From Phyllobacterium sp. 21LDTY02-6 (lineage in GTDB: Bacteria; Pseudomonadota; Alphaproteobacteria; Rhizobiales; Rhizobiaceae), in the NCBI RefSeq assembly GCF_023554255.2, contig NZ_JAMJWD020000001.1:558001-622000 (forward strand): DNA of 64,000 bases, in the 5' to 3' direction. Below, piece after piece: positions 5,928 through 35,200 of the stretch. Position 1 is the first letter of the stretch. Every line of letters starts with the position of its first letter. A model generated the notes under the pieces. That model had not been told where the DNA came from, did no database searches, and saw nothing but the letters and a program-made list of their open reading frames with translations. Made by a program: the position numbers and the translations under genes.

Positions 5928-5954
5928 CGTCGCGCGGTGTTTTAGCCATGTCGC
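5928..5954 (+). promoter_or_regulatory. tandem operator, 21-bp spaced half-sites (site A)
   Basis: CGTCGC (5928-5933), 15 bp, TGTCGC (5949-5954), reading toward the FAD/GcvT gene whose ATG is 98 bp downstream. The spacing and TGTCGC core match the direct-repeat format described for ArgR-type AraC regulators. Four more copies lie before other genes of this cluster. Confidence 0.6.
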
Positions 5955-6052
5955 AAACAGGCCGGAAGAAGCAATGGACGTCACTGCATAGTGCGAAAAA
6001 TGGGCGCAAGCCATGCCAACCATCGATCGGTACTACCAAAGGATAAAATGAA

Positions 6053-8569
6053 ATGAAGACTGAGGCGCGTGTTGTCGTTATCGGCGGTGGCGTGGTGGGT
6101 GTTTCGACGCTTTACCATCTGGCCAAGAAGGGCTGGAGCGACGTTGTACTGATTGAACGCAAGGAGCTCACATCCGGCTCGACATGGCATGCCGCGGGCC
6201 TGCTGCCACTGTTCAACATGAGCTACTCGGTTGGCCAGATCCACAAATATTCCGTAAAGTTCTATCAGGAACTGCAGGAGGAGACCGGCATGAATGTCGG
6301 CTTCTCCAATTGCACCAATATTCGCCTGGCGCGCACAAAAGACCGTTGGGACGAGTATATGTATTATGCCGGCGTTGCCGAAACGATCGGCGTACCGGTG
6401 AAAATGTTGACGCCGGAACAGGTCAAGGAAGTCTGGCCGTTGGCCGAGACGGATGGAATTCTCGGCGCGATCCAGCATCCGGACGATGGCTACATCCAGC
6501 CTGCCGACCTTACCCAGGCACTCGCCAAAGGGGCACGCGACCGCGGCGCCACCATCTATCGCTATACGACAGTCACCGGCATCGAGCAGCTGCCCGACGG
6601 GAAATGGCTGGTAAAGACCGACAAGGGCGACATAACAGCCGAACATGTGGTGTCCGCCACCGGCAATTTCGCCCGCAAGACGGGCCAGATGGTCGGGCTC
6701 GACGTCCCGGTCATTCCGGTCGAGCACCAATACATCGTCACCGAACCGCATCCGGCCATTGTCGAGCGCAAGGCGAAGGGCCTGCCGGAAATGGGCGTTC
6801 TCCGCGAGAGCGACTCCTCCTGGTACATGCGCGAGGAGAATGGCGGCCTTCTGCTTGGACCATACGAGCATGGCGCTCCGGTCTGCTATGTGGATGGCCC
6901 GTCGGATGGCAGCGAATACGAACTGTTCCAGGAGGATCTCGAGCGCCTCGAGCCCTATATCGAAACGGCCATAGCGCGCGTTCCCGCCTTTGGCGAAGTC
7001 GGGATCAAGAAGGTCTATAATGGCGCGATCGCCTATACGCCAGATGGTTCGCCGATCATCGGGCCTGCGCCACGGTTGAAGAATTTCTGGCTCAATGAAG
7101 GCCACTCCTTCGGCGTAACGGCCGCCGGTGGTGCTGGCTGGCAGCTGGCAGAATGGATCGTGGAAGGAGAACCCTCGATCGACATGATGGGTGTCGATCC
7201 GCGGCGCTTCGGACCCTACGCGACCGAAGGCTATCTCAAGGAGAAGAACGAAGAAGCCTATGCGGATGTGTTCACCGTCCACTACCCGGACGAAGAGCGC
7301 GTTGCGGCGCGGCCGTTGAAGCGGTCGCCCAGCTATGACCGCCAGAAGGAACTCGGAGCCGTTTTCGGCAGCGTCTATGGCTGGGAGCGGGCCAACTGGT
7401 TTGCGCCAAAGGGCTATGAACTCGACGTAGGCAAGCTGGAGAAACCGGACGTTCTCCTGAACCGGAACCATCCGATGCCCGACGCCAACGGCAAGATCAA
7501 GGAATTGTGGTCGTTCAGGCGGTCGAATTATTTCGAGCATGTCGGCAATGAAGTACGCAATGTGACGACCAATGTCGGTCTCCTCGACATGTCGGCATTC
7601 GCCAAGATGGAAGTATCCGGACCCGGAGCGCGTGCATGGCTCGATTCCATCCTGGCCAATCGCATCCCAAAGAAGCAGGGCCGGATTGCGCTGTGCCACC
7701 TCCTGACACATCAGGGTGGGGTGCGTTCGGAGTTCACGGTCTATGAATGGTCGCCGGGCCGGTTCTATCTCGTCTCGGCCGGTGCCTACGAGAACCATGA
7801 CCATGATTATCTCTACAAGTTGCTGCCAAATGACGGCTCGGTATCGCTGCGGTCTCTGACGGCTACCTTTGGCGTTCTTGTTCTTGCCGGACCACGCAGC
7901 CGCGACGTTCTGCAGAAGTTGACCCGTGCGGACCTCTCCAACGAGGCGTTCCCCTGGCTGTCAGGCAAGCAGATCAATGTGGGACCCGCCACCGCTCACG
8001 CGTTGCGCGTGAATTTCGTTGGTGAACTGGGCTGGGAGTTGCATCATCCGATCGAGCAACAGGCAACGATCTACGACATGTTGCTTGAGGCGGGCGCCGA
8101 ATTCGGCATCAAGCCATTCGGCATCCGTGCAATGACGGCCATGGCGGTGGAGAAGTCCTACCGGCTCATACCGCGCGAGCTTTCGATCGAATACAACGCG
8201 TTTGAAAGCGGACTTGACCGTTTTGTCCATCCCAACAAGGGTGATTTCATCGGTCGCGACGCGGTGGTCAAGGCTCGCGAAGAAGGGCTTCGATGGAACT
8301 TCGTCACGCTGGAGGTGCACGTCCCCGGTGTTTCGGACGTGGACGCCCGCGGCAGTGAGCCGATCTATGCCAAGGGCGAACTGATAGGCCGCGCCACCCA
8401 TGGCGGTTATGGTTGGCGCCTTGGCAAGAGCCTCGCATTGGCGATGGTAAAGCCTGCTCATTCCGCGCTCGGCACCGTGCTGGAGATCAAGATACTGGGC
8501 AAGAACCACAAGGCCACCGTGATCGCCGAGTCGCCGTTCGATCCCGAAAATGAACGTCTGAAGGCCTAG
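6053..8569 (+). CDS. FAD-dependent dimethylglycine/sarcosine dehydrogenase-like, DAO-GcvT fusion
   Basis: An 838-residue two-part enzyme. The N-terminal half is a DAO-type flavoprotein with the dinucleotide motif GGGVVG (residues 11-16) and GSTWHAAG; His46 matches the histidine that covalently binds FAD in dimethylglycine dehydrogenase. The second half (about 430-838) is a GcvT-like aminomethyltransferase domain that in this family captures the formaldehyde unit on tetrahydrofolate as methylene-THF. It has the full length expected of DMGDH or sarcosine dehydrogenase. Site A lies about 100 bp upstream, and a GbdR-like regulator is two genes away. It probably acts in the cytoplasm on dimethylglycine or sarcosine; the two cannot be told apart by eye. 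Confidence 0.85.
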   Translation: MKTEARVVVIGGGVVGVSTLYHLAKKGWSDVVLIERKELTSGSTWHAAGLLPLFNMSYSVGQIHKYSVKFYQELQEETGMNVGFSNCTNIRLARTKDRWDEYMYYAGVAETIGVPVKMLTPEQVKEVWPLAETDGILGAIQHPDDGYIQPADLTQALAKGARDRGATIYRYTTVTGIEQLPDGKWLVKTDKGDITAEHVVSATGNFARKTGQMVGLDVPVIPVEHQYIVTEPHPAIVERKAKGLPEMGVLRESDSSWYMREENGGLLLGPYEHGAPVCYVDGPSDGSEYELFQEDLERLEPYIETAIARVPAFGEVGIKKVYNGAIAYTPDGSPIIGPAPRLKNFWLNEGHSFGVTAAGGAGWQLAEWIVEGEPSIDMMGVDPRRFGPYATEGYLKEKNEEAYADVFTVHYPDEERVAARPLKRSPSYDRQKELGAVFGSVYGWERANWFAPKGYELDVGKLEKPDVLLNRNHPMPDANGKIKELWSFRRSNYFEHVGNEVRNVTTNVGLLDMSAFAKMEVSGPGARAWLDSILANRIPKKQGRIALCHLLTHQGGVRSEFTVYEWSPGRFYLVSAGAYENHDHDYLYKLLPNDGSVSLRSLTATFGVLVLAGPRSRDVLQKLTRADLSNEAFPWLSGKQINVGPATAHALRVNFVGELGWELHHPIEQQATIYDMLLEAGAEFGIKPFGIRAMTAMAVEKSYRLIPRELSIEYNAFESGLDRFVHPNKGDFIGRDAVVKAREEGLRWNFVTLEVHVPGVSDVDARGSEPIYAKGELIGRATHGGYGWRLGKSLALAMVKPAHSALGTVLEIKILGKNHKATVIAESPFDPENERLKA

Positions 8570-8587
8570 TCCCGGGTTCCAGACAAG

Positions 8588-8610
8588 TGGGCGCGCGAAT
8601 GGCGCGCCCA
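8588..8610 (+). terminator. hairpin after the FAD/GcvT gene
   Basis: TGGGCGCGC / GCGCGCCCA forms a perfect 9-bp stem with a 5-nt loop, 18 bp after the stop codon. Only a short T-rich stretch follows, so termination strength is uncertain. Confidence 0.55.
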
Positions 8611-9540: not shown

Positions 9541-10539
9541 TCAGGCGGCCATGAGCTGTTTTCTGTCAGCGCGCTCCTGCTGCGGCGAACGCCCGTAAAG
9601 TTCGCGATAGCATTTGGAGAAGTGCGAGGCGGAAACGAAGCCGCAGGCGACCGCAACTTCGACAATGGGCATTGACGACTGAATCAGGAGATGGCGCGCC
9701 CTGTCCAGCCGTATTTCGAGGTAGTAGCGCGCTGGGGACCGGCCCATTTCCTGGCGGAACAGTCTTTCGATCTGCCGCCGCGACAGGCCCACATGGTCTG
9801 CAATCTCGATCAGCGACAAGGGCTCGGACAGGCGTGCCTCCATCAATTCGATAATGGTCAACACCTTGGAATTCTGGACGCCGAGACGCGCACGCAGGGG
9901 TAGTCGCTGCCGGTCATGCGGGCTGCGGACCCGGTCGGTCAGCGCCTGCTCGCAAACGCGATTGACGATATTGTCGCCGAAATCATCGCCGATGAGCTTC
10001 AACATCATATCCAACGCCGCCGTTCCGCCGGCGCAGGTATAAATGTTTCCGTCTACTTCAAAGAGGTCGGCATAGACGTCGGCCTTCGGGAATGCTTCGG
10101 CAAAACCCGGCAGGTTTTCCCAATGGATCGCGCAGCGCTTGCCAGAAAGGAGGCCGGCCGCCGCCAATATGTGCGCGCCCGTGCATAGCCCGCCAACAGC
10201 GACGCCCCGATTGAATTCCTCGCGGAGCCAGGCGAATACGGACTTGTTCTGGAACTTCTCGACATGTACGCCGGCGCAGACGAAGACCATCGACGGACGT
10301 TCTTCGCCAGTCAGGAACCGCCGTTCATCTTCGAGCGAAGAATTGACTGCGCATTCGACACCGTTCGAAGCGGTGACCGGTCTCGCATCAACCGAGGCCA
10401 GACGCCAGCGATAGGCCTCGTAGCCCAACATCCGGTTCGCGATCCGCAGCGGCTCGATTGCCGTGGCAAAAGCGATCATCGAAAAATTGGGTACGAGAAA
10501 AAAGACGAACGACCGCTTGTTGAGACCGATTTGATCCAT
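9541..10539 (-). CDS. GlxA/GbdR-type AraC regulator with DJ-1/PfpI-like N-domain
   Basis: A 332-residue regulator. Residues about 10-190 form a DJ-1/PfpI (GATase1-like) domain, seen in FVFFLVPNFSMIAFATAIEPLR and GLCTGAHILAAAGLL. Residues about 225-325 are a two-HTH AraC domain with LSLIEIADHVGLSRRQIERLF and FVSASHFSKCYRELYG. Members include GbdR (glycine betaine/dimethylglycine), CdhR (carnitine) and ArgR, which bind direct repeats of TGTCGC-like half-sites 21 bp apart. Five such repeats lie before methyl-handling genes in this window, making this gene the best candidate activator. The direct link is inferred; binding has not been shown. Confidence 0.85.
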   Translation of the reverse strand: MDQIGLNKRSFVFFLVPNFSMIAFATAIEPLRIANRMLGYEAYRWRLASVDARPVTASNGVECAVNSSLEDERRFLTGEERPSMVFVCAGVHVEKFQNKSVFAWLREEFNRGVAVGGLCTGAHILAAAGLLSGKRCAIHWENLPGFAEAFPKADVYADLFEVDGNIYTCAGGTAALDMMLKLIGDDFGDNIVNRVCEQALTDRVRSPHDRQRLPLRARLGVQNSKVLTIIELMEARLSEPLSLIEIADHVGLSRRQIERLFRQEMGRSPARYYLEIRLDRARHLLIQSSMPIVEVAVACGFVSASHFSKCYRELYGRSPQQERADRKQLMAA

Positions 10540-11119: not shown

Positions 11120-12028
11120 GTGTCAGCCCCTATGCATCACCCAATTCCGATCCTTGATCTGGATGTTTTGCGTACTTTCGCGATGATCGCCGAAACCGGA
11201 AGTTTTTCGAGCGCCGCCAATGCGGTGTTTCGCACTCCCTCGGCTGTCTCGATGCAGATCAAGAAGCTCGAGGATATTCTCGGTCATGTCCTGCTCGAGC
11301 GCGACGCACGGTCGGTGAAACTGACCCCGAATGGCGAGATTCTGCTTGGTTACGCCAAGCGTATGCTGGCACTCAACCGCGAAACCGTCGCCAAATTCAT
11401 TGCGCCGACCGTTTCCGGCGTTGTGCGTCTCGGCGCGCCTGATGATGTCGGGGAGCGCGTTCTTCCTTTCGTGTTGAAGCGTTTCGCCGATTCCCATCCG
11501 GATGTGACGGTCGATGTCGTCATCGACCAAAGCAACAGCCTGCGAAAGCGGCTCGACGAACAGCGCCTGGACGTGACGCTCGTGAATGTGAACGAGACAT
11601 TGGCCAAGCTGGACGAGATCGAGGTCCTGATGACCGAGGAGATCATCTGGGCCGGGGCCAAATGCGGCACCGCCCACGAGCGCAACCCGTTGCCGCTCTC
11701 GATGTGGGAGGAGGGCTGCATATGGCGCGCCAATGCAATCGAATCGCTGGAGAAGGCCGGTCGCGATTATCGCGTGGCCTATATGAGTGCCCACACGATG
11801 GGGCAGCGTGCCGCGATCATAGCTGATCTTGCAGTTGCGCCATTCTCCAAGTTTCTACTGGATGACAATATGGTGCAACTCGGACCGGAGCATGGATTGC
11901 CTCCGCTCGGGGAGTCGAAGCTGGGCATGCTGGTCGCCAAGGATGCCGGCGCCCATATCCGGGCTGTCGCGCAGCATTTGCGCGTCTATTTCGAAGGCTA
12001 TGAACGGACTGGCAAGCTCAGCTGTTGA
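11120..12028 (+). CDS. LysR-family transcriptional regulator
   Basis: A 302-residue LysR regulator. The N-terminal winged HTH is at residues about 12-70 (DLDVLRTFAMIAETGSFSSA, then TPSAVSMQIKKLED). The C-terminal inducer-binding domain starts near residue 98. GTG at 11120 is chosen because GGAG lies 7 bp upstream; an ATG four codons in is the alternative. It is divergent from the DUF1127-like gene, its likely target. The final 11 bp overlap the convergent cutC gene. The effector is unknown. Confidence 0.85.
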   Translation: MSAPMHHPIPILDLDVLRTFAMIAETGSFSSAANAVFRTPSAVSMQIKKLEDILGHVLLERDARSVKLTPNGEILLGYAKRMLALNRETVAKFIAPTVSGVVRLGAPDDVGERVLPFVLKRFADSHPDVTVDVVIDQSNSLRKRLDEQRLDVTLVNVNETLAKLDEIEVLMTEEIIWAGAKCGTAHERNPLPLSMWEEGCIWRANAIESLEKAGRDYRVAYMSAHTMGQRAAIIADLAVAPFSKFLLDDNMVQLGPEHGLPPLGESKLGMLVAKDAGAHIRAVAQHLRVYFEGYERTGKLSC

Positions 12029-13719: not shown

Positions 13720-15804
13720 CTATTCCCGGTTGCGGCGGGCGGCGCGATCTTCCCGCGAGCGCCGGCGCGGCGTGGCTTCGCCAGGCGTGGCGCCATCCGA
13801 CAGGCTTTTGCGCGGCGGCAGGGTGACGGCCTCTGACAATTTGGGGAAAGGATCGACCTTGTTCGGCAGGGCCATCGCATAGACGAAATGCTCCTGGAAC
13901 TTCGGTTCGAGCGCCGTTTCGATCTTTTCGATGCTGGTAACGGCATTTTCGATTTCGCGGCGGTAATTGCGGTTCAGCAAAGCCATGCGGGCACCCGTAC
14001 CGGCGGCATTGCCGACCGCCTGCACCTTGTCGAGATCACAGTCCGGAATGAGGCCGAGGACCATCGCATATTTCGGATCGATGAACGAACCGAATGCTCC
14101 GGCAAAGCGGATCTGGTCGACATGGTCGATACCAAGCTTGTCCATCAGGAGTTTGACGCCGGCATAGAGCGCAGCCTTGGCCAGTTGGATGGCGCGAACG
14201 TCATTTTGCGTGATGGTGATCGTCGGTGATCCCTCATGCAGCAGATACGAGAATGTGCGGCCGGTAGCGACAATTCGCGACGACCGTGCCGCCATGGCAC
14301 CATCGACAACGCCGTCTTCCGAGATGATGCCGGAAAGATACATCTCGGCCACGACCTCGATGATAGCCGATCCGCAAATTCCGGTGATGCCGGTCTTGGC
14401 GACTGCTTCCGCGAAGCCGGGCTCGTCCGACCATTGTTCGGTACCAATGACACGAAAGCGGGGTTCGAGCGTCAGCGGATCGATGCGAACGCGTTCGATC
14501 GCCCCCGGTGCTGCGCGCTGGCCGCCGGAGATTTCGGCGCCCTCGAATGCCGGACCGGTGGGAGACGACGCGGCCACGGTTCTTACGCGATTGCCAAGGA
14601 CGATCTCGGCATTGGTGCCGACATCGACCAGAAGCATCATTTCATCCTGCCGGTGTGGTCCCTCGGCCAGCGTGGCGGCGGCGGCATCGGCGCCGACATG
14701 ACCGGCTATGCAAGGCAGCATGTAGAGCCGGGTGCCCGGGTTCATCGTCAGGCCGATTTCAGACGCCTTGGTATGAACTGCACCGGAGACGGCGAGGGCG
14801 AACGGAGCACCGCCAAGCTCGGTCGGATCAATACCGAGGAAGAGGTGATGCATGATCGGGTTGCCAACGAAGACGCTGTCGAGGATGTCCTCTCGCGCAA
14901 CGCCGCCCTCCGCGCAGACCTTGTCTATCAGGCCGTTGATGGCTTCACGAACCGCCTTCGTCATCGCCTCGCGTCCGTCCGGATTCATCATGACGTATGA
15001 CACGCGGCTCATCAGGTCTTCGCCAAAGCGGATCTGCGGGTTGGATGTGCCGGCCGAGGCGATCGTGCGCACCGAAAGAAGCGACGACAAATGCATGGCT
15101 ATGGTGGTGGAGCCAATATCGCAGGCGATGCCATAGGCCTCGTTCTTCAGCCCCGGATAGAGCGCTATCATGGTCGGGCTGAGGCTTTCCTCGTCATGGT
15201 GAATGGCTGCCGTGACGGCCCATTGACCTTGGCGCAGGATCTTCTGTACCTGCGGCAATAGATGCGTATCGACGGAAATGCCCGTCAGCCCCCATTCCCT
15301 TTCAAGCGCCGCCTTCAGCCGATCAAGATCGCCGAGAGGCTTGTGCATGTCGGGTTCTTCAACTTCGACATAGCACATCCGCACCGCCGGATTCCGCTCG
15401 ATAACGCGGGTGTCGGCGGCCTTGCGGACGATCTGAGCGTTTATCTGAACATCCTGCGGCACATCGACCACAAGATCGCCAAGGATAGTGGCAGAACAGG
15501 AAAGACGGCGCCCCTCTTTGAGGTCGCGCTTTTCCGCATATCGCTGCTCCTTGGGGCCGAACTCGGAAATATGATCATTGGAGGAAGTGATGCCGTGCTT
15601 GGCAAATCGCCCTTCCTGCACCTCGACCTGGCAGCGGCCGCATATGCCGCGACCGCCACAGACGCTTTCCACGTAGACGCCGAGCGTGCGGGCGGCCTCG
15701 AGCACCGGCGTGCCAACCGGAAAGCGTCCGCGCTTTCCCGATGGCATGAACAGGACCAGGGCTTCCTTGCTATTTGTTTCGGGCGTCTTCACGGGTGCAT
15801 TCAA
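13720..15804 (-). CDS. corrinoid activation protein, [2Fe-2S]-ASKHA (RACo/DUF4445 type)
   Basis: A 694-residue protein. An N-terminal plant-type ferredoxin domain has Cys49, Cys55 and Cys58 (CGGRGICGRC) plus Cys103. The large C-terminal part is an ASKHA ATPase domain (ACDIGSTTIAMHL, LLVDVGTNAEIVLG). Such proteins use ATP and a low-potential electron to return inactive Co(II) corrinoid to Co(I), like RACo and related activators of methyltransferase systems. The start appears to be TTG at 15804, with GGAG 8 bp upstream and no in-frame ATG nearby. It is the last gene of the operon after the MetF- and MtgA-like genes. An Arg-rich tail (9 Arg in the last 32 residues) is unusual. Confidence 0.85.
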   Translation of the reverse strand: MNAPVKTPETNSKEALVLFMPSGKRGRFPVGTPVLEAARTLGVYVESVCGGRGICGRCQVEVQEGRFAKHGITSSNDHISEFGPKEQRYAEKRDLKEGRRLSCSATILGDLVVDVPQDVQINAQIVRKAADTRVIERNPAVRMCYVEVEEPDMHKPLGDLDRLKAALEREWGLTGISVDTHLLPQVQKILRQGQWAVTAAIHHDEESLSPTMIALYPGLKNEAYGIACDIGSTTIAMHLSSLLSVRTIASAGTSNPQIRFGEDLMSRVSYVMMNPDGREAMTKAVREAINGLIDKVCAEGGVAREDILDSVFVGNPIMHHLFLGIDPTELGGAPFALAVSGAVHTKASEIGLTMNPGTRLYMLPCIAGHVGADAAAATLAEGPHRQDEMMLLVDVGTNAEIVLGNRVRTVAASSPTGPAFEGAEISGGQRAAPGAIERVRIDPLTLEPRFRVIGTEQWSDEPGFAEAVAKTGITGICGSAIIEVVAEMYLSGIISEDGVVDGAMAARSSRIVATGRTFSYLLHEGSPTITITQNDVRAIQLAKAALYAGVKLLMDKLGIDHVDQIRFAGAFGSFIDPKYAMVLGLIPDCDLDKVQAVGNAAGTGARMALLNRNYRREIENAVTSIEKIETALEPKFQEHFVYAMALPNKVDPFPKLSEAVTLPPRKSLSDGATPGEATPRRRSREDRAARRNRE

Positions 15805-15893: not shown

Positions 15894-16856
15894 TCAAACA
15901 GCCGCACCGCGGCGCGCTTCCCGGCCACCGCGCCGCCGTCCGCCGTTGGACGAAGCGGCCTCCGCTGGCACCGACGGTGCAACTCCTGCCGCCGCGGGCT
16001 GATGATCGCGGTATTTCTTGATCCAGTAAGTGCAATTGGCGTCGGTCCCATTGAGGACATTGGCGGCATGCACCGCTTCCATCTCCTGCGGTCGGCACGG
16101 GTTCATGATGGCCGACGTCATTCCGGCGCCGATGACCATCGGGATGAAACCTGCATTGATGCCGTGCCTGTGCGGCAGGCCAAACGAGATATTCGAGAGG
16201 CCGCACGTGGTGTTGACCTTCAATTCTTCGCGCAGGCGGCGGAGCAGTGCAAAAACCTGCCTGCCGGCATCTCCGAGGGCCCCGATCGGCATGACCAGCG
16301 GATCAACGACGATATCATGCGCGGGAATGCCGAAATCCGCGGCGCGCTCGACGATCTTCTTGGCGACGGCAAAGCGGACGTCCGGGTCCATCGAAATACC
16401 GGTCTCGTCATTCGATATCGCCACGACCGGGACATTGTATTTCTTGATGAGAGGCAAGATCGCCTCGAGCTTTTCCTCTTCGCCAGTGACGGAATTTACC
16501 AGCGGGCGGCCCTTCGCAACCCTCAAGGCGGCCTCGATAGCGGCCGTGACGGAACTGTCGATGGACAGCGGAACATCGACGAGGTTCTGCACGATCTCAA
16601 GTGTCTTGACGAGAAGGTCCGGCTCCGTGGCGTTCGGATCGACCGCCGTGACGCCGGCATTGACATCCAGCATCGTTGCGCCTGCCGCCACCTGTTCCAG
16701 CGCGTCCTTGGTCACCGTGTCGAAATTGCCCGCCACCATCTCTGCGGCCAGTTTCTTGCGGCCGGTGGGATTGATGCGCTCGCCGATCACACAGAAGGGC
16801 TGGTCAAAACCGATGATGATTTCTCTTGTCGCCGAGGCAACGATCGTACGGGTCAT
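15894..16856 (-). CDS. methyltetrahydrofolate:corrinoid methyltransferase, MtgA/AcsE-like
   Basis: A 320-residue pterin-binding TIM barrel. GERINPTGRKKLA (residues 26-38) and ATMLDVNAGV are the signature segments shared with AcsE, MtgA, and the folate domain of MetH. The enzyme moves a methyl group between a corrinoid protein and tetrahydrofolate; in a catabolic setting it would make methyl-THF. It begins 10 bp after the MetF-like gene and has a good GAGG ribosome site. The C-terminal 19 residues (SSNGGRRRGGREARRGAAV) are an Arg/Gly-rich tail not expected for the fold. Being alone rather than inside MetH, it fits corrinoid methyl catabolism. Confidence 0.87.
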   Translation of the reverse strand: MTRTIVASATREIIIGFDQPFCVIGERINPTGRKKLAAEMVAGNFDTVTKDALEQVAAGATMLDVNAGVTAVDPNATEPDLLVKTLEIVQNLVDVPLSIDSSVTAAIEAALRVAKGRPLVNSVTGEEEKLEAILPLIKKYNVPVVAISNDETGISMDPDVRFAVAKKIVERAADFGIPAHDIVVDPLVMPIGALGDAGRQVFALLRRLREELKVNTTCGLSNISFGLPHRHGINAGFIPMVIGAGMTSAIMNPCRPQEMEAVHAANVLNGTDANCTYWIKKYRDHQPAAAGVAPSVPAEAASSNGGRRRGGREARRGAAV

Positions 16857-18119: not shown

Positions 18120-18146
18120 ACGACGCGCGTGCACTCAAATGCGACG
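18120..18146 (-). promoter_or_regulatory. tandem operator, 21-bp spaced half-sites (site B)
   Basis: On the minus strand CGTCGC, 15 bp, CGTCGT, ending 61 bp before the ATG of the MetF operon. A further CGTCGC lies 24 bp upstream of the first half-site (18165-18170). The spacing equals that of site A. Confidence 0.6.
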
Positions 18147-18212
18147 TTGCCAGATGGTGTTTTTGCGACGCCGCAACCAGCCGGATATGGCCTTCGGAAA
18201 GTGACGATCTGC

Positions 18213-19560: not shown

Positions 19561-20190
19561 TCACGAAGGGACGGAAGCGGCCTTCGCGAGCGCGGACGGA
19601 AGATCGCCATAACCGGTGAAGCGGCGTTCATAGGCGAGACCGAGAAACTGTGCCGCCCGCTCCGCCTTCAGATCGAGCTCCGGGTCGTCCGTCTGCGCCA
19701 TGTAGATCATCTTTTTGTAATGCCCGAAATACATGTCCCGCAATTCAGGATGCCGGTTCAGTCCCAAGGGTTTGACCATGAAGGTTTCAAAATGGCGGGC
19801 AAGAAAGTCGGTCATGAAGAATGATGTCATGTCATCCTCCCATTGCTCGGCGAATTTGGCATTGCCGGTATAGAACGAAAAGCAATGCGGGCCGGCAATG
19901 CGCTCCACGCCGTGGCGCTTGCAGACTTCGTCCAGCAGGCCGCCGGTGCCGCAATCGGCATAGCCGACAAAAACATGGTCGATGCCTTCGGTGCGGGCCT
20001 CGGAGATTGCCCTGTCGACCGCTGCGGGGATTTTATCGGGATGATGATGGAAGTCGGCGGGCAGGCACGTAAGCTGCACATGGTCCAGCCCGAGAGATTG
20101 GCGAATTGCCAGCACCTCGCGTGCAATCATGCCACAGGCGATGACTCTGACGGTGCTGGGCGAAATATTGTTCTTGCGGCTAACATTCAT
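19561..20190 (-). CDS. DUF1638 domain protein, associated with corrinoid methyltransferases
   Basis: A 209-residue soluble protein. VRVIACGMIAREVLAI, LPADFHHHPDKI and DHVFVGYADCGTGGLLDE are characteristic of DUF1638. In methanogens and sulfate reducers this domain is repeatedly found beside methylamine-type methyltransferase and corrinoid genes, and the co-occurrence here is consistent. The conserved His and Cys residues (HHH, DCGTGG) could bind metal. No reaction is established. It is divergent from the entericidin gene and close to the corrinoid gene. Confidence 0.75.
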   Translation of the reverse strand: MNVSRKNNISPSTVRVIACGMIAREVLAIRQSLGLDHVQLTCLPADFHHHPDKIPAAVDRAISEARTEGIDHVFVGYADCGTGGLLDEVCKRHGVERIAGPHCFSFYTGNAKFAEQWEDDMTSFFMTDFLARHFETFMVKPLGLNRHPELRDMYFGHYKKMIYMAQTDDPELDLKAERAAQFLGLAYERRFTGYGDLPSALAKAASVPS

Positions 20191-21258: not shown

Positions 21259-21285
21259 GCGACCTAGTGAATGACGAAAACGACT
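21259..21285 (-). promoter_or_regulatory. tandem operator, 21-bp spaced half-sites (site C)
   Basis: On the minus strand AGTCGT, 15 bp, GGTCGC, pointing at the corrinoid gene and ending 95 bp before its ATG. It lies in the 237-bp divergent region shared with mttB-1 and could serve both promoters. Confidence 0.55.
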
Positions 21286-21400: not shown

Positions 21401-22987
21401 ATGACCGAGGAAATGCCAATCGATGTTCCCGCAGAGGCGGAGGCAGGCAGTGGACGTCGCGGCAGGGGAAGCGGTGGAGGCGCGGCTGCCCGCCGTGCGG
21501 CCCGATCGGGCGGCGGCCCCGGCAAATCGCTGACCTATATCCGGCGGAAGATCCACACCTATGATGTCCTCGATGAAGAGGGGCTGGCACTGATCGAAGC
21601 CAATGCGGATACTGTGCTGGAGGAGATCGGCATCGAGTTCCGCGACGATGCCGAGGCGTTGTCGCTCTGGAAGGAAGCGGGCGCCGACGTGAAGGGCGAG
21701 CGGGTTCACTTCCCGAAAGGCCTGCCGCGTTCCTTGTTGAAGACCGCGCCGTCCATCTATACGCAGCACGCGCGAAATCCGGAACGTTCGGTCCAGATTG
21801 GCGGCGATGCCACTGTGTTCGCACCTGTCTACGGCCCGCCCTTCGTCCGGGATCTCGATGGCAACAGGCGCTATGCGACGATTGCCGATTTCCAGAATTT
21901 CGTGAAGCTGGCCTATATGGCGCCTTCGATCCATCATTCCGGCGGCACGGTTTGCGAGCCCGTCGACGTGCCGGTCAACAAGCGCCATCTGGACATGATC
22001 TATGCGCACATCAAATACTCCGACAAGCCCTTCATGGGCTCGGTGACTGCGCCCGAGCGCGCAGAAGATACCATCGAGATGTGCAAAATGGTGTTCGGCG
22101 AGGATTTCCTTGACCGGAACACCGTGCTCACCAGCCTGATCAATGCAAATTCGCCTATGGTTTTCGACGAAACCATGCTGGGCGCATTGAAGGTCTATGC
22201 GCGCAACAATCAGGCTTGCATTGTCACGCCGTTCATTCTCGCCGGCGCAATGAGCCCGGTCACGGTGGCCGGGACGCTGACACAGGTTCTCGCCGAAGTT
22301 CTGGCGGGCGCTTCGTTCACCCAGCTGGTGCGTCCCGGCGCCCCCGTTATCTTCGGCACCTTTGCCTCGTCCATATCGATGCAGTCGGGGGCCCCGACCT
22401 TCGGCACGCCCGAACCTTCTCTCGTATCCTACGGCGCTGCGCAGCTCGCGCGCCGTCTGGGGCTGCCTTTCCGTACAGGCGGGTCGCTCTGCGCCTCCAA
22501 GGTCTCCGATGCACAGGCTGCCTATGAAAGCGCCAATACGCTGAACTCGACATTGCTTGCAGGCACGAACTTCGTCCTGCATGCGGCGGGCTGGCTCGAA
22601 GGCGGGCTGGTGTCGTCCTACGAGAAGTTCATGATGGATATCGACCAGCTTGGCATGGCCCAAAGGCTCTCGGAAGGTGTGGACCTGTCGGAAAACGGTC
22701 AGGCCATGGATGCAATCCGCCAGGTTGGCCCCGGTAGCCACTATCTCGGCTGCGACCATACGCAGGCAAATTTCCAGACCGCGTTCTATCGCTCGACGAT
22801 GGCCGACAACAACTCCTACGAACAATGGCTGGCCGAAGGGGAGAAACGCGCGGATCAACGAGCCAACGAGCTCGCACGCCGCTGGCTGGAAACCTATGAG
22901 GCGCCCTATCTGGACCCCGCGATCGACGAATCCCTGAAGGAGTTCATCGCCAAGAAGAAGGCTTCGATGCCCGACGCATTCACGTGA
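21401..22987 (+). CDS. MttB-superfamily methyltransferase, non-pyrrolysine (paralogue 1, MtgB-like)
   Basis: A 528-residue member of the trimethylamine methyltransferase superfamily. Typical blocks are TPFILAGAMSPVTVAG, a LVRPGAPV segment, FGTPE, DAQAAYES and LHAAGWLEGGL. The frame is open throughout with no in-frame amber, so it is a non-Pyl member like the glycine betaine methyltransferase MtgB. It would transfer one methyl from a quaternary amine to the corrinoid protein encoded divergently beside it. The ATG at 21401 has GGAG 7-8 bp upstream. Residues 15-40 form a Gly/Arg-rich low-complexity leader, unusual for the family. Substrate (glycine betaine, proline betaine, carnitine or other) is not determinable. 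Confidence 0.88.
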   Translation: MTEEMPIDVPAEAEAGSGRRGRGSGGGAAARRAARSGGGPGKSLTYIRRKIHTYDVLDEEGLALIEANADTVLEEIGIEFRDDAEALSLWKEAGADVKGERVHFPKGLPRSLLKTAPSIYTQHARNPERSVQIGGDATVFAPVYGPPFVRDLDGNRRYATIADFQNFVKLAYMAPSIHHSGGTVCEPVDVPVNKRHLDMIYAHIKYSDKPFMGSVTAPERAEDTIEMCKMVFGEDFLDRNTVLTSLINANSPMVFDETMLGALKVYARNNQACIVTPFILAGAMSPVTVAGTLTQVLAEVLAGASFTQLVRPGAPVIFGTFASSISMQSGAPTFGTPEPSLVSYGAAQLARRLGLPFRTGGSLCASKVSDAQAAYESANTLNSTLLAGTNFVLHAAGWLEGGLVSSYEKFMMDIDQLGMAQRLSEGVDLSENGQAMDAIRQVGPGSHYLGCDHTQANFQTAFYRSTMADNNSYEQWLAEGEKRADQRANELARRWLETYEAPYLDPAIDESLKEFIAKKKASMPDAFT

Positions 22988-26826: not shown

Positions 26827-26836
26827 AGCCCATTAC

Positions 26837-30219: not shown

Positions 30220-31794
30220 TCAGAAATCCGTCGGCGCGCCGCCTTCCGCCTTGCGCCGTGCGACGAAGGCATCGATCTCTTCTTCGATCGCGAGATCGAT
30301 TGCGGGTTTGGTATAGGTCGCCAGACGCTCTTTCCAGAGGCGGTTGGCGCGCTGGATGGCTGTAGGCGAACCGGCTTCCTGCCATGTCTCGTAGTTCCGC
30401 CAGTCGGATATGATGGGCGAATAGAATGCCGTCTTGTAGCGCGACTGCGTATGGGCAGTGCCGAAGAAATGACCGCCTGGGCCGACATCCCGCATGGCGT
30501 CCACGCCAAGCGCATCCTGCGACAGGTCCAACGGGGTCAGAAATTCGGCTACCATCTGCAGCAGATCGATATCCAGCATCATCTTCTCGTATGAACAGCA
30601 AAGGCCGCCTTCGAGCCAGCCGGCCGAGTGGAGCATGAAGTTTGCTCCGCCCTGAATGGCGCCCCACAGGGAAAACACCGATTCGTAGGCGGCCTGCGCG
30701 TCAACCGTATTGGCGGCGCAAACATTAGAGGTGCGGTAGGGGATGCCATAGCGTCTCGCCAATTGTCCGCCGATGAGCTGCGCCTTCATATATTCGGGTG
30801 TTCCGAAGGCGGGTGAACCGGATTTCATGTCCACATTGGAGGTAAAGCCGCCATAGCCGACGGGAGCGCCCTTCTTGACCATCTGCGTGAAGGCGATGCC
30901 CGCCAATGCCTCGGCATTCTGCTGCACGAGGGCGCCGGCAATGGTAACCGGGGCCATTGCTCCGGCCAGGGTGAACGGGGTGACGATGACGAGCTGGCCA
31001 TTGCCCGACATCTGGATGATGCCTTCCATCATCGGGATATCGAGCCTCAAGGGTGAATTCGTATTGATGATGGTGTAGCAAGACGGTTCGTCCTGCAATT
31101 GTTCGCGGCTTATCCCCCGAGCCAGCCGCGCAATCTCTATTCCATCCTCATTTCGCTCCTTGCCGAGCGAATAGATGTGGAATGCCTTGTCGGTGAGGGT
31201 GGCAAGGTCTCTGATACATTCGAGGTGCCGAACCGATGGATGGATGTCGATGGGCTCGACGGGATAGCCGCCGCTCATGTTGATGATATTATGCATCTGG
31301 GCGAGCTTGAGGAAATTGCGAAAGTCCGCCTGGTTTCCCGAGCGCCTGCCATTGTCGGTGTCGGAGCAATTTGGCGCAGAACCCATCTGGGCGAAGATGA
31401 GATTATTGCCACCGAAGCGCACATTATGCGCCGGGTTGCGCGCGTGCATCGTGAATTCAGAAGGCGCATGGCCGACATGCTCAAGGATCATCTCCGGGTC
31501 GAAACGCACGCGCATGCTGCCTGGGACGATATCGGCGCCGGCTTGCTTCATGATTTCGCGCGCGCCGTCGTGGAGGACATCGACACCGATTTCCCGCAGG
31601 ACCTGCAGGGAAGCATTGTGGATCGATTCCAGTTCGTCGTCGGAAACGATCTTGGTCGGCGTGATCGGAATGCGAAGCTGGCGAAAGGGTGGCTGGTCGA
31701 ATGGGCCGCTTGCGACATCGCGGGGCCTTGCCCGTCCGCCACGCCTGCCATGTGCCTGTTTTTCGCTATCGGTTCCTGTCGCGGATTCGCTCAT
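30220..31794 (-). CDS. MttB-superfamily methyltransferase, non-pyrrolysine (paralogue 2)
   Basis: About 524 residues, homologous along its length to paralogue 1 (TPFTLAGAMAPVTIAG, TQMVKKGAPVGYGGF, DAQAAYESVFSLW, LHSAGWLEGGL). There is no in-frame amber codon. ATG at 31794 is preferred since GAGG lies 8-9 bp upstream; ATG at 31800 is possible. Residues 16-25 form an Arg-rich patch (GRRGGRARPR). It sits between proVWX and the second FAD/GcvT gene with operator site D upstream, so it probably demethylates the substrate that ProXWV imports. There is no corrinoid protein of its own nearby. Confidence 0.87.
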   Translation of the reverse strand: MSESATGTDSEKQAHGRRGGRARPRDVASGPFDQPPFRQLRIPITPTKIVSDDELESIHNASLQVLREIGVDVLHDGAREIMKQAGADIVPGSMRVRFDPEMILEHVGHAPSEFTMHARNPAHNVRFGGNNLIFAQMGSAPNCSDTDNGRRSGNQADFRNFLKLAQMHNIINMSGGYPVEPIDIHPSVRHLECIRDLATLTDKAFHIYSLGKERNEDGIEIARLARGISREQLQDEPSCYTIINTNSPLRLDIPMMEGIIQMSGNGQLVIVTPFTLAGAMAPVTIAGALVQQNAEALAGIAFTQMVKKGAPVGYGGFTSNVDMKSGSPAFGTPEYMKAQLIGGQLARRYGIPYRTSNVCAANTVDAQAAYESVFSLWGAIQGGANFMLHSAGWLEGGLCCSYEKMMLDIDLLQMVAEFLTPLDLSQDALGVDAMRDVGPGGHFFGTAHTQSRYKTAFYSPIISDWRNYETWQEAGSPTAIQRANRLWKERLATYTKPAIDLAIEEEIDAFVARRKAEGGAPTDF

Positions 31795-31868
31795 TGCCAT
31801 GCCCTCAATCGCACCTGATGGTGTGGCTTTCACTATCGCCAAGCGACCGCAAAAGATGCGTGGCCTGA

Positions 31869-31895
31869 ACGACGCTCAGCGCGAGGGAAGCGACA
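31869..31895 (-). promoter_or_regulatory. tandem operator, 21-bp spaced half-sites (site D)
   Basis: On the minus strand TGTCGC, 15 bp, CGTCGT, ending 74 bp before the ATG of mttB-2, in the 167-bp gap behind proV. Confidence 0.6.
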
Positions 31896-31961: not shown

Positions 31962-33029
31962 CTATTCCGCGGCTGCGCTAAGATGGCTGATCGGGGTCAC
32001 CATCGCCTGGATAAGGCTGTTCATGCTGATGACGCCGATGCTCTTGCCGGACTCGTCCACCACCGTTGCATATTGCTGGTTGGCGTCGGTCATGGTCTTG
32101 GCGGCATCCTCCAAAATCGTACCGGACTTGACCGTTACGCTGCCTAGATCGGGCGGCGTGGCACCGGTCGTTGCTATCGTGTCGACCATGATGACGCGGC
32201 CGCGATTCACTTCCTTTACGAAGCTCGAGATATATTCATCGGCAGGCTGAAGGACGATATCCTGTCCTGTTCCCTGCTGAACGATTTCCCCATCACGAAG
32301 GATCGCGATGCGGTCGCCGAGGCGCAGTGCCTCGTCAAGGTCGTGGGTGATGAAGACGACCGTCTTCTTGATTTCCTTCTGGAGATCCAGCAGGACCGAT
32401 TGCATATCCATGCGGATAAGCGGATCGAGCGCCGAAAAGGCCTCGTCCATCAGGAGAATCGGCGCGTCATTGGTCAGCGCTCGTGCGAGGCCGACGCGTT
32501 GCTGCATGCCGCCGGAAAGCTGGTTGGGATAATTGTCCTCAAAGCCTTTGAGTCCGACACGTTCGATCCAGCGCCGGGCCTGCTCTTCCTGCTTCGTGCG
32601 GGACAATCCCTGTATTTCCAGGCCGTAGACCGTATTATCCAGCACCGTGCGGTGCGGGAGCAGGGCGAACTTCTGGAACACCATGGCGGTCTTGTGCCGC
32701 CGGAACTGGCGCAATTCATTCTCGTTCATCTTGCAGACATCATCGCCATCGATAATGACTTCGCCGGCCGTTGGGTCTATCAAACGGTTGATGTGACGGA
32801 TCAGCGTGGACTTGCCCGAACCGGAAAGCCCCATGACAACCTGAATACAACCAGCTGGCATATCGATGTTGATATCACGCAATCCGAGCACGTGGGCGTG
32901 CTTCTCATTGAGCTCAGCTTTCGTCATGCCGTTCTTGACGGCCTCGACATGGGCGGAAGGACGCTGGCCGAAGATCTTGTAGAGATTCTTGATCCTGATG
33001 CCAGCGTGCTGTGGTGATGGATTAGCCAT
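31962..33029 (-). CDS. proV: glycine betaine/proline ABC transporter ATP-binding protein ProV
   Basis: A 355-residue ATPase. Walker A is GLSGSGKS, the signature is LSGGMQQRVGLARAL, and Walker B is ILLMDEAFSALDP. The C-terminal 80 residues resemble a single CBS-type regulatory region (SVTVKSGTILEDAAKTM, then YATVVDESGKSIGVI). ATG at 33029 (MANPSPQH) is chosen; it overlaps the proW stop by 8 bp. It energises import of quaternary amines at the inner membrane and is the last gene of proX-proW-proV. Confidence 0.92.
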   Translation of the reverse strand: MANPSPQHAGIRIKNLYKIFGQRPSAHVEAVKNGMTKAELNEKHAHVLGLRDINIDMPAGCIQVVMGLSGSGKSTLIRHINRLIDPTAGEVIIDGDDVCKMNENELRQFRRHKTAMVFQKFALLPHRTVLDNTVYGLEIQGLSRTKQEEQARRWIERVGLKGFEDNYPNQLSGGMQQRVGLARALTNDAPILLMDEAFSALDPLIRMDMQSVLLDLQKEIKKTVVFITHDLDEALRLGDRIAILRDGEIVQQGTGQDIVLQPADEYISSFVKEVNRGRVIMVDTIATTGATPPDLGSVTVKSGTILEDAAKTMTDANQQYATVVDESGKSIGVISMNSLIQAMVTPISHLSAAAE

Positions 33030-33909
33030 GTACGACCTCTTGATGCTTCTGCAGACGCTTGCCATAGGCCTGACTGACGCGGTCAAAAATGATGGCAATG
33101 CCTACGATGGCAAGACCGTTGAATAGCCCAAGGGAAAAGAACTGGCCGTTGACGGAGCGCAGAACCGGCTGGCCTAGTCCCTGCACGCCGATCATCGAAG
33201 CGATGACCACCATTGCCAGCGCCATCATGATGGTCTGGTTGATGCCGGCCATGATCGTGGGCAGGGCGAGCGGAATCTGGACGTTTTTCAGCCTCTGCCA
33301 ACTGGAGGAGCCGAAGGCGTCGGCCGCTTCGAGAACGTCCTTGTCGACGAGCCTGATGCCGAGATTGGTCAGGCGTATCATTGGCGGGATCGCGTAGATG
33401 ACGACCGCGATAAGGCCGGGCACCTTGCCGATACCAAGAAGCATGACGACGGGTATGAGGTAGACGAAGCTCGGCATGGTCTGCATCACATCGAGTATCG
33501 GATTGACCAAACGCTGGAAACTGTCCGAGCGAGCCATGATGATGCCGATGGGAATGCCGACGACGATGGACACGACGGTGCCGACAAATATCATCGCGAT
33601 GGTCTTCATCGCGTCGCTCCACATGTCGAAATAGCCGATGAGGAGGAGGGTGATGATGGTGCCGCCGACGATCTTCCAGTTGCGGCTCGCGAGCCATGCA
33701 ATCCCCGCTATCAGGACGATCATGATTGGCCACGGCGTCGTGGTCATGAACTTTTCGGCCTGGATCAGGAAATATTGCAGCGGCCGAAAGAATGTTTCGA
33801 TGACGTCGCCATAACTGCGCGTGAAAGCCTTGAAGCCCTCATCCATCGTCTTTTTCAGATTGCGCAGCGTATCGTCATTCATATTCGGGAATGAGTAGAA
33901 CCAATCCAT
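33022..33909 (-). CDS. proW: glycine betaine/proline ABC transporter permease ProW
   Basis: A 295-residue permease with about six membrane helices and the EAA-like loop VLEAADAFGSSSWQRLKNVQIPL that contacts the ATPase. The N-terminal 60 residues are hydrophilic, as in ProW/OpuAB relatives. It is downstream of proX and overlaps proV. The complete XWV set lies directly behind mttB-2, tying uptake to demethylation. Confidence 0.92.
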   Translation of the reverse strand: MDWFYSFPNMNDDTLRNLKKTMDEGFKAFTRSYGDVIETFFRPLQYFLIQAEKFMTTTPWPIMIVLIAGIAWLASRNWKIVGGTIITLLLIGYFDMWSDAMKTIAMIFVGTVVSIVVGIPIGIIMARSDSFQRLVNPILDVMQTMPSFVYLIPVVMLLGIGKVPGLIAVVIYAIPPMIRLTNLGIRLVDKDVLEAADAFGSSSWQRLKNVQIPLALPTIMAGINQTIMMALAMVVIASMIGVQGLGQPVLRSVNGQFFSLGLFNGLAIVGIAIIFDRVSQAYGKRLQKHQEVVHG

Positions 33910-33999: not shown

Positions 34000-34022
34000 G
34001 CGGCGGAGTCTTGCTCCGCCGC
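34000..34022 (-). other. intercistronic hairpin between proX and proW
   Basis: GCGGCGGAG / CTCCGCCGC, a perfect 9-bp stem with a 5-nt loop starting 8 bp after the proX stop. There is no T tract on the transcribed side. Such hairpins often protect the upstream message so that the binding protein is made in excess over the permease; that role is inferred. Confidence 0.6.
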
Positions 34023-34029
34023 ATGCAAA

Positions 34030-35034
34030 TTACTGTACTGCGGCCTTGATTTTCTCGGCAGCTTCCGGCGAAACCCAACTGGCCCAGGTCGCCTCATTGT
34101 TCTTGAGGTAGTATTTGGCGCCATCTTCACCGGTGGCCTGATTGTCCACCATCCATGCCAGGAGCTTGTTGGCGTCTTCGGTGGATATCTGCCGCTTCTT
34201 CAAATATTCGAAGGCGGGGCCGGCACGATCAGCGAATTTCTTCGTCACGATCGTGTAGATGTCGGCAATGGGCCAGCCGTTCGGCTTGGGATCCGGGCAA
34301 TCCGCGATGGCATTGCAACGGTTCCATTCCTTCTCGTCCCACGCCACGCCGTTGTCCAGTTTGACCATGGGATATTTTCCGAGGATCGCCGTTGGGCCCC
34401 AGTAATAGCCGAGCCATGGTTCCTTGCGCTCATAGGCCTTGGCAATAGAGCCATCGAGGCCGGCGGCAGAACCCGTATCAACCAGCGTGAAGCCGTTCTT
34501 CTCGCCTTCATAGGCCTTGAAGAAATTCGTTGTCGTGATCTGGCATGCCCAACCGGAGGGGCAATTGTAGACAGCACCCTTCTTGGGATCTTCCGGCGAG
34601 GGGAAGAGCTCCGGATGTTTCATCGCATCAGCGATGGTCTTGATCTCCGGATGTGCGTCCGCAAAATATTTTGGTACCCACCAGCTCTCGGTGCCACCCT
34701 CGGTAATTGCGGGCGCTGCATAGACCAGCTTGCCTTCCTTGACGGCTTTCTCGAGCGGCTCACGAACGGCATTGAGCCAGCCTTCCGGTGCGATGTCCGG
34801 CTCGCCTTTTTCGATCATGGAGGTGAAGGTTGGAACGGTGTCGCCGGCCACAAGTTCGGCATCGCAGCCATAACCTTCCGACAGAATGATCTTGTCGAGA
34901 TTGGCGAGAGCTTCAGCCGATTGCCAGTTCATGTTTGCGATCGTCACGGTACCGCAGTCTTCGGCCGCTGATGCCGTTCCGGCATAACCCAGAAGGCCTG
35001 TGACCAATATAGTCGAAGCCAATAGCTTCTTCAT
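34030..35034 (-). CDS. proX: glycine betaine/proline substrate-binding protein ProX
   Basis: A 334-residue OpuAC-type periplasmic protein. The signal peptide MKKLLASTILVTGLLGYAG is cleaved at about residue 23 (ASA). The mature part has many Trp residues (MNWQSAEAL, ESWWVPKYF, GYYWGPTAI), as expected for the aromatic cage that holds trimethylammonium groups. It is the first gene of proXWV, with operator site E about 140 bp upstream. Specificity among glycine betaine, proline betaine and choline-like compounds cannot be read off. Confidence 0.92.
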   Translation of the reverse strand: MKKLLASTILVTGLLGYAGTASAAEDCGTVTIANMNWQSAEALANLDKIILSEGYGCDAELVAGDTVPTFTSMIEKGEPDIAPEGWLNAVREPLEKAVKEGKLVYAAPAITEGGTESWWVPKYFADAHPEIKTIADAMKHPELFPSPEDPKKGAVYNCPSGWACQITTTNFFKAYEGEKNGFTLVDTGSAAGLDGSIAKAYERKEPWLGYYWGPTAILGKYPMVKLDNGVAWDEKEWNRCNAIADCPDPKPNGWPIADIYTIVTKKFADRAGPAFEYLKKRQISTEDANKLLAWMVDNQATGEDGAKYYLKNNEATWASWVSPEAAEKIKAAVQ

Positions 35035-35173
35035 GATGGTAGTCTCCCACTCTTTGGACAGTTCACCCTTACGCGAATTACTGCTGGTACTGCCTCACCC
35101 AGCTTCGCTTGTGCCATTTGGCATTATTATCCCGGCAGAATGCAATGGTTCCACTGAATAAATGCGGTCTAAC

Positions 35174-35200
35174 GCGACAATGCCTGTCGATATAACGACG
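35174..35200 (-). promoter_or_regulatory. tandem operator, 21-bp spaced half-sites (site E)
   Basis: On the minus strand CGTCGT, 15 bp, TGTCGC, pointing toward proX and ending 139 bp before its ATG. Confidence 0.6.

What the first reader, a model, noticed from the sequence alone, without database searches (positions are those of the whole stretch)
5928..35200. Five 21-bp spaced GTCG direct repeats mark the promoters of the methyl cluster
Sites at 5928-5954 (+), 18120-18146 (-), 21259-21285 (-), 31869-31895 (-) and 35174-35200 (-) all read NGTCG(C/T)-N15-NGTCG(C/T). All are oriented with the gene they precede, 61-139 bp before the start codon. In the roughly 1 kb of these five upstream regions, two GTCG tetramers at exactly this spacing would be expected about 0.03 times by chance (both strands, equal base frequencies). 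Reading the other intergenic regions by eye I found none. P. aeruginosa ArgR, an AraC protein with the same DJ-1-like N-domain as the regulator at 9541-10539, binds TGTCGC direct repeats of this period. This suggests one betaine-responsive regulon spanning 30 kb.
Basis: partly seen in the sequence, partly recalled or inferred. Interest (0 to 1): 0.85.

Follow-up and report, generated by a model that had tools for sequence, protein, structure and literature searches.

The report
GbdR-type betaine regulon operator sites
Five matching DNA repeats in this soil bacterium are the probable landing sites of one switch protein that turns on genes for using the nutrient glycine betaine, and many related bacteria have kept the same repeats before the same genes.

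Summary
The window (Phyllobacterium) holds exactly five GTCGY-N16-GTCGY repeats. All are intergenic and point at betaine-type genes: a dimethylglycine/sarcosine-dehydrogenase-type gene, the PF13769-metF2-mtgD-ramA run, mtgC, mtgB2 and proXWV. In the same genome I classified 157 of the 172 other matches: 151 are coding, and two precede a gene on the same strand, a GbcA-like (betaine monooxygenase) gene and an L-serine dehydratase gene. In relatives, 21-22 bp spaced repeats in the same orientation precede 48/48 PF13769 genes, 65/70 distinct mtgC promoters, 24/28 mtgB2, dehydrogenase genes in 65/71 loci and 26/29 gbcA-like genes, against 4/516 control promoters. Outside the family, 20/29 mtgC promoters of other Alphaproteobacteria have it. 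The proX site is patchy (9/30) and the serine-dehydratase site is not conserved (0/29). Best explanation: operators of the GbdR-like AraC regulator at 9541-10539. The published Pseudomonas CdhR site (GGTCGC-N15-GGTCGC, said to resemble GbdR, SouR and ArgR sites) has the same form. The operator type is known; a GbdR regulon over the corrinoid (Mtg) pathway was not found in my paper searches. Binding and betaine response are inferred.

The parts
5929..5954 (+). Site 1, GTCGC-N16-GTCGC, 98 bp before an FAD/GCV_T dehydrogenase-type gene
   Evidence: relatives: 65 of 71 loci, of which 11 of 14 orthologs and 54 loci with a 27-29% identical protein of the same domain make-up
6053..8569 (+). dimethylglycine/sarcosine dehydrogenase-type protein (DAO + FAO_M + GCV_T + GCV_T_C)
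   Evidence: Pfam; NCBIfam models shown all below cut-off
9541..10539 (-). GbdR-like AraC-family regulator (DJ-1/PfpI + HTH_18); proposed binder of the sites
   Evidence: NF052371 361.5 bits, cut-off 480; Pfam; ortholog (about 71% identity or more) in 128 of 151 family genomes, 108 of 110 with mtgC
13720..15804 (-). RamA-like corrinoid reductive activase (RACo domains)
   Evidence: Pfam; NF040756 and TIGR04270 below cut-off
15894..16856 (-). mtgD-like pterin-binding methyltransferase
   Evidence: PF00809; name by analogy with PMC12478193
16867..17775 (-). metF2-like methylenetetrahydrofolate reductase
   Evidence: PF02219
17756..18058 (-). PF13769 small protein, first gene of the run with metF2-, mtgD- and ramA-like genes
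18120..18145 (-). Site 2, GTCGC-N16-GTCGT, 61 bp before the PF13769 gene
   Evidence: relatives 48 of 48 with 21 or 22 bp spacing
19561..20190 (-). DUF1638 protein downstream of mtgC
   Evidence: PF07796
20474..21163 (-). mtgC-like corrinoid protein
   Evidence: NF047996, 213 bits, best match but below the curated cut-off of 370; B12-binding domains
21259..21284 (-). Site 3, GTCGT-N16-GTCGC, 95 bp before mtgC, between divergent mtgC and mtgB1
   Evidence: relatives 65 of 70 distinct promoters (67 of 72 rows) in the family, 20 of 29 in the class
21401..22987 (+). mtgB1, MttB-superfamily methyltransferase, divergent from mtgC
   Evidence: PF06253, 788 bits
27584..30160 (-). second FAD/GCV_T dehydrogenase-type gene, downstream of mtgB2
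30220..31800 (-). mtgB2, MttB-superfamily methyltransferase
   Evidence: PF06253; TIGR02369 below cut-off; start
31869..31894 (-). Site 4, GTCGC-N16-GTCGT, 68 bp before mtgB2
   Evidence: relatives 24 of 28, 27 of 28 if the fifth base is free
31962..33098 (-). proV-type ABC ATPase of the betaine uptake genes
   Evidence: TIGR01186 over cut-off
33022..33909 (-). proW-type permease
   Evidence: TIGR03416 below cut-off
34030..35034 (-). proX-type binding protein (OpuAC), first gene of proXWV
   Evidence: PF04069
35174..35199 (-). Site 5, GTCGT-N16-GTCGC, 139 bp before proX
   Evidence: relatives 9 of 30

Best explanation
The five repeats are operators of the GbdR-like AraC-family activator encoded at 9541-10539. 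A dimer would bind two directly repeated GTCGY half-sites about two helical turns apart (21, in some relatives 22 bp), upstream of the promoter. On sensing glycine betaine or its product dimethylglycine it would switch on betaine uptake (proXWV), corrinoid-dependent demethylation (mtgB2; mtgC-DUF1638; PF13769-metF2-mtgD-ramA), FAD/folate-dependent demethylation of the products, and, elsewhere in the genome, a GbcA-like O2-dependent monooxygenase gene. Shown here: the sites, their concentration at betaine-type promoters in this genome, their conservation, and co-occurrence with the regulator. Inferred: binding by this protein, activation, and the ligand.
For: Exact sites at five promoters. Genome-wide, 151 of 157 classified non-window matches are coding, and only 2 of the 6 non-coding ones point at a downstream gene on the same strand: GbcA-like (NF058607 best match, 517.9 bits, cut-off 670) and L-serine ammonia-lyase (TIGR00720 over cut-off). 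Relatives keep 21/22 spacing and orientation: PF13769 gene 48/48, mtgC 65/70 distinct promoters, mtgB2 24/28, dehydrogenase-type gene 65/71 loci, against 4/516 upstream regions of 14 other genes in the fetched loci; gbcA-like 26/29. In other alphaproteobacterial families 20 of 29 mtgC promoters have it, 0 of 29 reversed, and no other spacing from 8 to 40 occurs more than once. mtgC genomes carry the regulator ortholog in 108 of 110. G115 has mtgC, no regulator match and no site; G097 has a gbcA-like gene, no regulator match and no site. The P. aeruginosa CdhR site is GGTCGC-N15-GGTCGC, 'very similar' to GbdR, SouR and ArgR sites (PMC5806209 passages), the same 21 bp period.
Against: The regulator scores below the curated GbdR cut-off (361.5 against 480). 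A 45% identical paralogue (L002, 329.7 bits on the same model) and a 31% one (L003, 212.4 bits) exist and could share sites. The proX site is in only 9 of 30 relatives and the serine-dehydratase site in 0 of 29. Three dehydrogenase orthologs of 14 (L009, L010, L080) and three loci with the 27-28% protein (L042, L045, L047) lack a paired site. G110 has the mtgC site but no regulator was found (genome 68% complete). G042 and G102 have the regulator and a gbcA-like gene but no gbcA site. mtgC copies without a paired site occur in G050, G142, G080 and G056, which have the regulator. Nine of 29 class-level mtgC promoters lack it; their regulator content was not checked. No -10 box common to all promoters was found. 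No binding or expression data.
Confidence: 0.87

Rival explanations
1. The sites are real operators, but the main binder is a paralogous regulator of the same family: L002 (C7:432990, beside what looks by eye like folD, perhaps SouR-like) or L003 (C1:951713, beside what looks by eye like a BKACE-type gene, perhaps CdhR-like).
For: L002 scores 329.7 and L003 212.4 bits on the GbdR model. Related Pseudomonas regulators have very similar sites, and CdhR binds a GbdR target in vitro (PMC5806209 passages).
Against: The window regulator sits inside the cluster, is the best match of the three, and is present in 108 of 110 mtgC genomes. Of the 40 genomes, 21 have a single match at 1e-60 (the window-type regulator); 20 of these 21 keep a 21/22 bp mtgC site. 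Weaker paralogues below that threshold were not excluded.
Confidence: 0.08
2. The repeats mark promoters of betaine genes but are a target of another factor, such as the LysR regulator at 11120-12028, which is kept beside the AraC gene in most relatives.
For: The LysR gene lies within 1.5 kb of the regulator in 72 loci, out of 80 regulator loci fetched.
Against: LysR-type sites are recalled as interrupted palindromes (T-N11-A), not 21 bp direct repeats. The match is to the published form of AraC-family sites.
Confidence: 0.03
3. Chance: a frequent GC-rich word that happens to fall in five promoters.
For: 177 matches in the 4.6 Mb genome; with free choice of tetramer and spacing, 15 of 60 shuffles reach 5 or more.
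Against: 151 of 157 classified others are coding; conserved in many genera and families at the same spacing and orientation.
Confidence: 0.005

Closest known systems
GbdR regulon of Pseudomonas aeruginosa
   Same: AraC regulator with DJ-1-like N-domain; direct-repeat half-sites with a conserved CG; betaine transport and catabolism genes (gene list partly recalled; the regulon paper is not held)
   Different: Here main targets are corrinoid methyltransferase genes (mtgB, mtgC, mtgD, ramA, metF2 types); the host is an alphaproteobacterium; in some relatives the spacing is 22 bp; the score is below the GbdR model's cut-off
CdhR site of P. aeruginosa (GGTCGC-N15-GGTCGC, PMC5806209, passages)
   Same: half-site core and 21 bp period
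   Different: the first base of the half-site is free here and the last is C or T; targets are betaine rather than carnitine genes
MtgBCD betaine demethylation in Ruegeria pomeroyi (PMC12478193)
   Same: mtgB, mtgC, mtgD, metF2, ramA, DUF1638 gene set, more abundant on betaine; MtgE looks constitutive (part 1 of Results)
   Different: its main text has no occurrence of GbdR, AraC, promoter or motif; Phyllobacterium also has full-length MetH, so mtgC/mtgD need not serve methionine synthesis here

Membership tests
GbdR-type (DJ-1/PfpI + AraC HTH) regulators | DJ-1/PfpI N-domain plus AraC-type HTH C-domain | tested here: met
   PF01965, PF12833, PF00165 over cut-offs
GbdR (NCBIfam NF052371 equivalog) | score over curated cut-off 480 | tested here: not met
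   361.5 bits; best family for this protein and best of the three paralogues. Hence GbdR-like, not GbdR
GbdR/CdhR/SouR/ArgR operators | two direct GTCG-core half-sites, 21 bp period | tested here: met
   against the CdhR site quoted
GbdR/CdhR/SouR/ArgR operators | upstream of and oriented to genes of the cognate pathway | tested here: met
GbdR/CdhR/SouR/ArgR operators | bound by the regulator; CG of half-site needed | not testable with these tools
   needs gel shift or footprint
GbdR regulon | induced by glycine betaine or dimethylglycine | not testable with these tools
   needs expression data
MtgBCD betaine demethylation pathway | MttB-type, corrinoid, pterin-binding and RamA-type proteins encoded together | tested here: met
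   Pfam; NCBIfam MtgC and RamA models below cut-off
MtgBCD betaine demethylation pathway | substrate is glycine betaine | not testable with these tools
   needs growth or enzyme assay

The most novel reading that the evidence does not exclude
A GbdR-type regulon older than the family and spread across Alphaproteobacteria, using 21/22 bp GTCG direct repeats, controls both the O2-independent corrinoid (Mtg) and the O2-dependent Rieske (Gbc) routes of betaine demethylation, and marks PF13769 ('virulence factor') and DUF1638 proteins as dedicated members of the methyl pathway.
Probability: 0.65. Interest if true: 0.55.

Novelty: new member of a known kind. Interest (0 to 1): 0.5.

Why it matters
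Corrinoid-dependent betaine demethylation in aerobic bacteria was reported in 2025 (PMC12478193), and the main text of that paper does not mention GbdR, AraC, promoters or motifs. This gives a concrete regulator, operator and gene list, testable with a gel shift and a deletion. It would place two routes of demethylation under one switch, offers a sequence tag for finding further pathway genes, and suggests that proteins called 'virulence factor' (PF13769) and DUF1638 belong to methyl metabolism.

Tried and rejected
Considered and rejected: chance (see rivals). A common -10 at a fixed distance from all sites: TANNNT clusters 29-33 bp after the site for the dehydrogenase gene, best partial matches near 31 bp for proX and gbcA, nothing clear for the PF13769 gene or mtgC, and mtgB2 could not be scored, so overlap of the proximal half-site with -35 is only a guess. 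Autoregulation: no site upstream of the regulator (0 of 79 at 21 bp; 1 of 79 at 21/22). The L-serine dehydratase site looked like a regulon member but no relative examined has it (0 of 29). 15 of 172 non-window matches (on C9 and later contigs) were not listed by the tool and not classified. The classifier was trained on window genes and mis-called the CutC region near 12018-13196, so single calls may be wrong. Of the control genes several lie inside operons, so their upstream regions overlap coding DNA; mtgB1 (31 rows, site seen in reverse in 25) and four genes with one row each were left out of the control sum. Two mtgC rows were the same genomes fetched twice and are removed in the 65/70 count. 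Information content is high in half-sites by construction (rows were chosen by the motif), so I do not use it as evidence. In one search I misread the strand of loci; one search replaces it. For mtgC I fetched 40 of the roughly 80 places without loci; for class-level mtgC I read 29 of 43 other genomes. Relatives' proX hits are mostly 62-69% identical, about as close as the window genome's own second proX (66%), so many may not be orthologs. The regulator's relatives among solved structures are AraC-type HTH domains and DJ-1-type domains by sequence; no structure was predicted.

Papers: PMC5806209, PMC8041468, PMC3900636, PMC4417242 and PMC5554395 seen as passages only; PMC12478193 as outline, passages and part 1 of the Results; all others as search listings. 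PMC4417242 names a 'transcriptional regulator GbdR' in a Neorhizobium gene table, without betaine; PMC5554395 (Brucella) uses mtgC as an island label. The GbdR regulon papers 10.1128/JB.01055-13 and PMC2293255 are not held, so the GbdR consensus itself was not read.
Full report
What was claimed and what is there. A scan finds exactly these five GTCGY-N16-GTCGY matches in the window and no other. Each lies between genes and is oriented with the gene it precedes, 61-139 bp before its start codon. In shuffled non-coding segments of the first 42 kb the pattern appears 0.036 times on average and never five times in 500. Had any tetramer and any spacing from 12 to 32 been allowed, 15 of 60 shuffles would have reached five or more. 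The within-window count is therefore good but not decisive.

The genes. Closest relatives are Phyllobacterium. Site 1 precedes an FAD/folate-type dehydrogenase gene of the dimethylglycine/sarcosine kind. Site 2 precedes a PF13769 protein gene followed by metF2-like, mtgD-like (pterin-binding) and ramA-like genes. Site 3 precedes mtgC and a DUF1638 gene, with an MttB-superfamily gene (mtgB1) diverging. Site 4 precedes a second MttB-superfamily gene (mtgB2) and another dehydrogenase-type gene. Site 5 precedes proXWV. In Ruegeria pomeroyi the same kinds of genes are more abundant on betaine, and mtgC and mtgD are needed to grow on it (PMC12478193: abstract and part 1 of the Results read). A BHMT-type gene (mtgE-like, 23762-24772; NF005718 over cut-off) has no site, which fits the statement there that MtgE looks constitutive. 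Phyllobacterium also has a full-length metH at C9.

Whole-genome specificity. The genome has 177 matches, five in the window. I fetched and classified 157 of the other 172 with a codon-model Viterbi trained on window genes; 15 were not listed by the tool. 151 are coding. Of six non-coding ones, two point at a gene downstream on the same strand: C1:184494, upstream of a GbcA-like gene (NF058607 best match over nearly its whole length, 517.9 bits, cut-off 670), and C1:993385, upstream of an L-serine ammonia-lyase gene (TIGR00720, 619.5 bits, cut-off 345.1). So seven oriented intergenic sites were found, five in this 30 kb and one at another betaine-type gene.

Conservation in the family. I located homologues in 80 loci around the regulator and in loci for mtgB2, mtgC and proX from 151-genome family samples. 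Within 300 bp upstream, excluding the window's own loci, a 21 or 22 bp repeat in the right orientation occurs at 48 of 48 PF13769 genes, 67 of 72 mtgC rows (65 of 70 distinct promoters), 24 of 28 mtgB2 (27 of 28 if the fifth base is free), 65 of 79 dehydrogenase rows and 9 of 30 proX. Fourteen other genes of the fetched loci show 4 of 516. The 79 dehydrogenase rows are 71 loci, of which 65 have a site: 11 of 14 orthologs, and 54 loci whose protein is only 27-29% identical but, in the example tested with Pfam, of the same domain make-up. In the spacing spectra of these promoters 21 (and 22 at mtgC) stands out in one orientation; lesser peaks exist, such as 24 at the PF13769 gene (11 of 48) and 35 at mtgC (13 of 72). 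Of 40 further mtgC promoters 26 have 21 bp, 12 have 22 bp, one is degenerate, and one (G115) has none. For the gbcA-like gene 26 of 29 relatives have the site, mostly 356-398 bp upstream, a few at 139-158; for the serine dehydratase 0 of 29.

Beyond the family. In a class-wide sample 44 of 240 genomes have mtgC, the window's own included. Of the 29 other loci returned, 20 have the repeat (18 at 21, 2 at 22 bp), none reversed, and no other spacing occurs more than once. By the handles these 20 lie in 16 families other than the window's. A homologue of the regulator is encoded within the short flanks in three of the 29 loci.

The regulator. The protein at 9541-10539 has a DJ-1/PfpI domain and an AraC-type HTH. 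Its best family is NCBIfam GbdR (361.5 bits), below the curated cut-off of 480. An ortholog (about 71% identity or more) is present in 128 of 151 family genomes and in 108 of the 110 that have mtgC. Of the two mtgC genomes without a match, G115 (99% complete) lacks the mtgC site; G110 (68% complete) has it. G097 has a gbcA-like gene, no regulator match and no gbcA site; G042 and G102 have the regulator and still lack the gbcA site. Two paralogues in this genome score 329.7 and 212.4 on the GbdR model. Of the 40 genomes, 21 had a single match at 1e-60, and 20 of these still have the mtgC site, so the closer paralogue is unlikely to be required.

Comparison with the literature. In PMC5806209 (passages only) the footprinted CdhR site of P. 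aeruginosa is GGTCGC-N15-GGTCGC, said to be very similar to GbdR, SouR and ArgR sites, and CG-to-AA changes abolish GbdR binding. The form and 21 bp period are those seen here. The GbdR regulon paper is not held. PMC12478193 has no occurrence of GbdR, AraC, promoter or motif in its main text. Searches for GbdR with binding site, with Alphaproteobacteria, with Rhizobium, with consensus and direct repeat, for mtgC with regulon, and for betaine catabolism with Sinorhizobium showed no paper on this regulon in their listings (one search listed 20 of 39 papers). Two listed papers were opened and were not about it. These searches cover open-licence papers only.

Mechanism. Shown: site geometry, location, concentration at betaine-type genes, and conservation. 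Inferred from the family: a dimer binds both half-sites, one per subunit, and activates transcription when betaine or dimethylglycine is present. A -10-like element about 31 bp after the site at some promoters would put the proximal half-site next to the -35 box, but this is weak, and at gbcA the site is usually far upstream of the start codon. The regulon would give uptake, corrinoid demethylation, methyl-group oxidation and the oxygenase route in one response.

Verdict. The operator is of a known kind; its regulon content and reach appear unreported in what I could search.

Noticed in passing
17756-18058: The Pfam 'Virulence factor' family PF13769 protein heads the metF2-mtgD-ramA run; a homologue also lies beside mtgC in 15 of 29 class-level loci. 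Its family name probably misleads.
   Followed up: partly
11120-12028: A LysR-type regulator lies within 1.5 kb of the GbdR-like gene in 72 loci out of 80 regulator loci fetched, 58% identical or more; role unknown.
   Followed up: partly
18165-18169: A third GTCGC half-site lies 24 bp upstream of site 2; 11 of 48 relatives also show a 24 bp GTCGY pair in this promoter.
   Followed up: no
39723-39957: Cobalamin riboswitch (RF00174, 81.6 bits) upstream of cobalt/B12-type genes beside the betaine cluster.
   Followed up: no
4115-5824 (-) and 23069-23749 (+): Likely genes without a Pfam match.
   Followed up: no
L002:1495-2490 (G000:C7:432990): Second GbdR-like regulator, 45% identical, beside what looks by eye like folD; may be a SouR-like sarcosine sensor (name and role recalled).
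   Followed up: partly
G000:C1:926630-927628: A second proX (66% identical); no 21 bp match is listed upstream of it.
   Followed up: partly
L244:901-926: A 21 bp site 89 bp upstream of an L-serine dehydratase gene, absent from 29 of 29 relatives examined; chance or a recent gain.
   Followed up: yes
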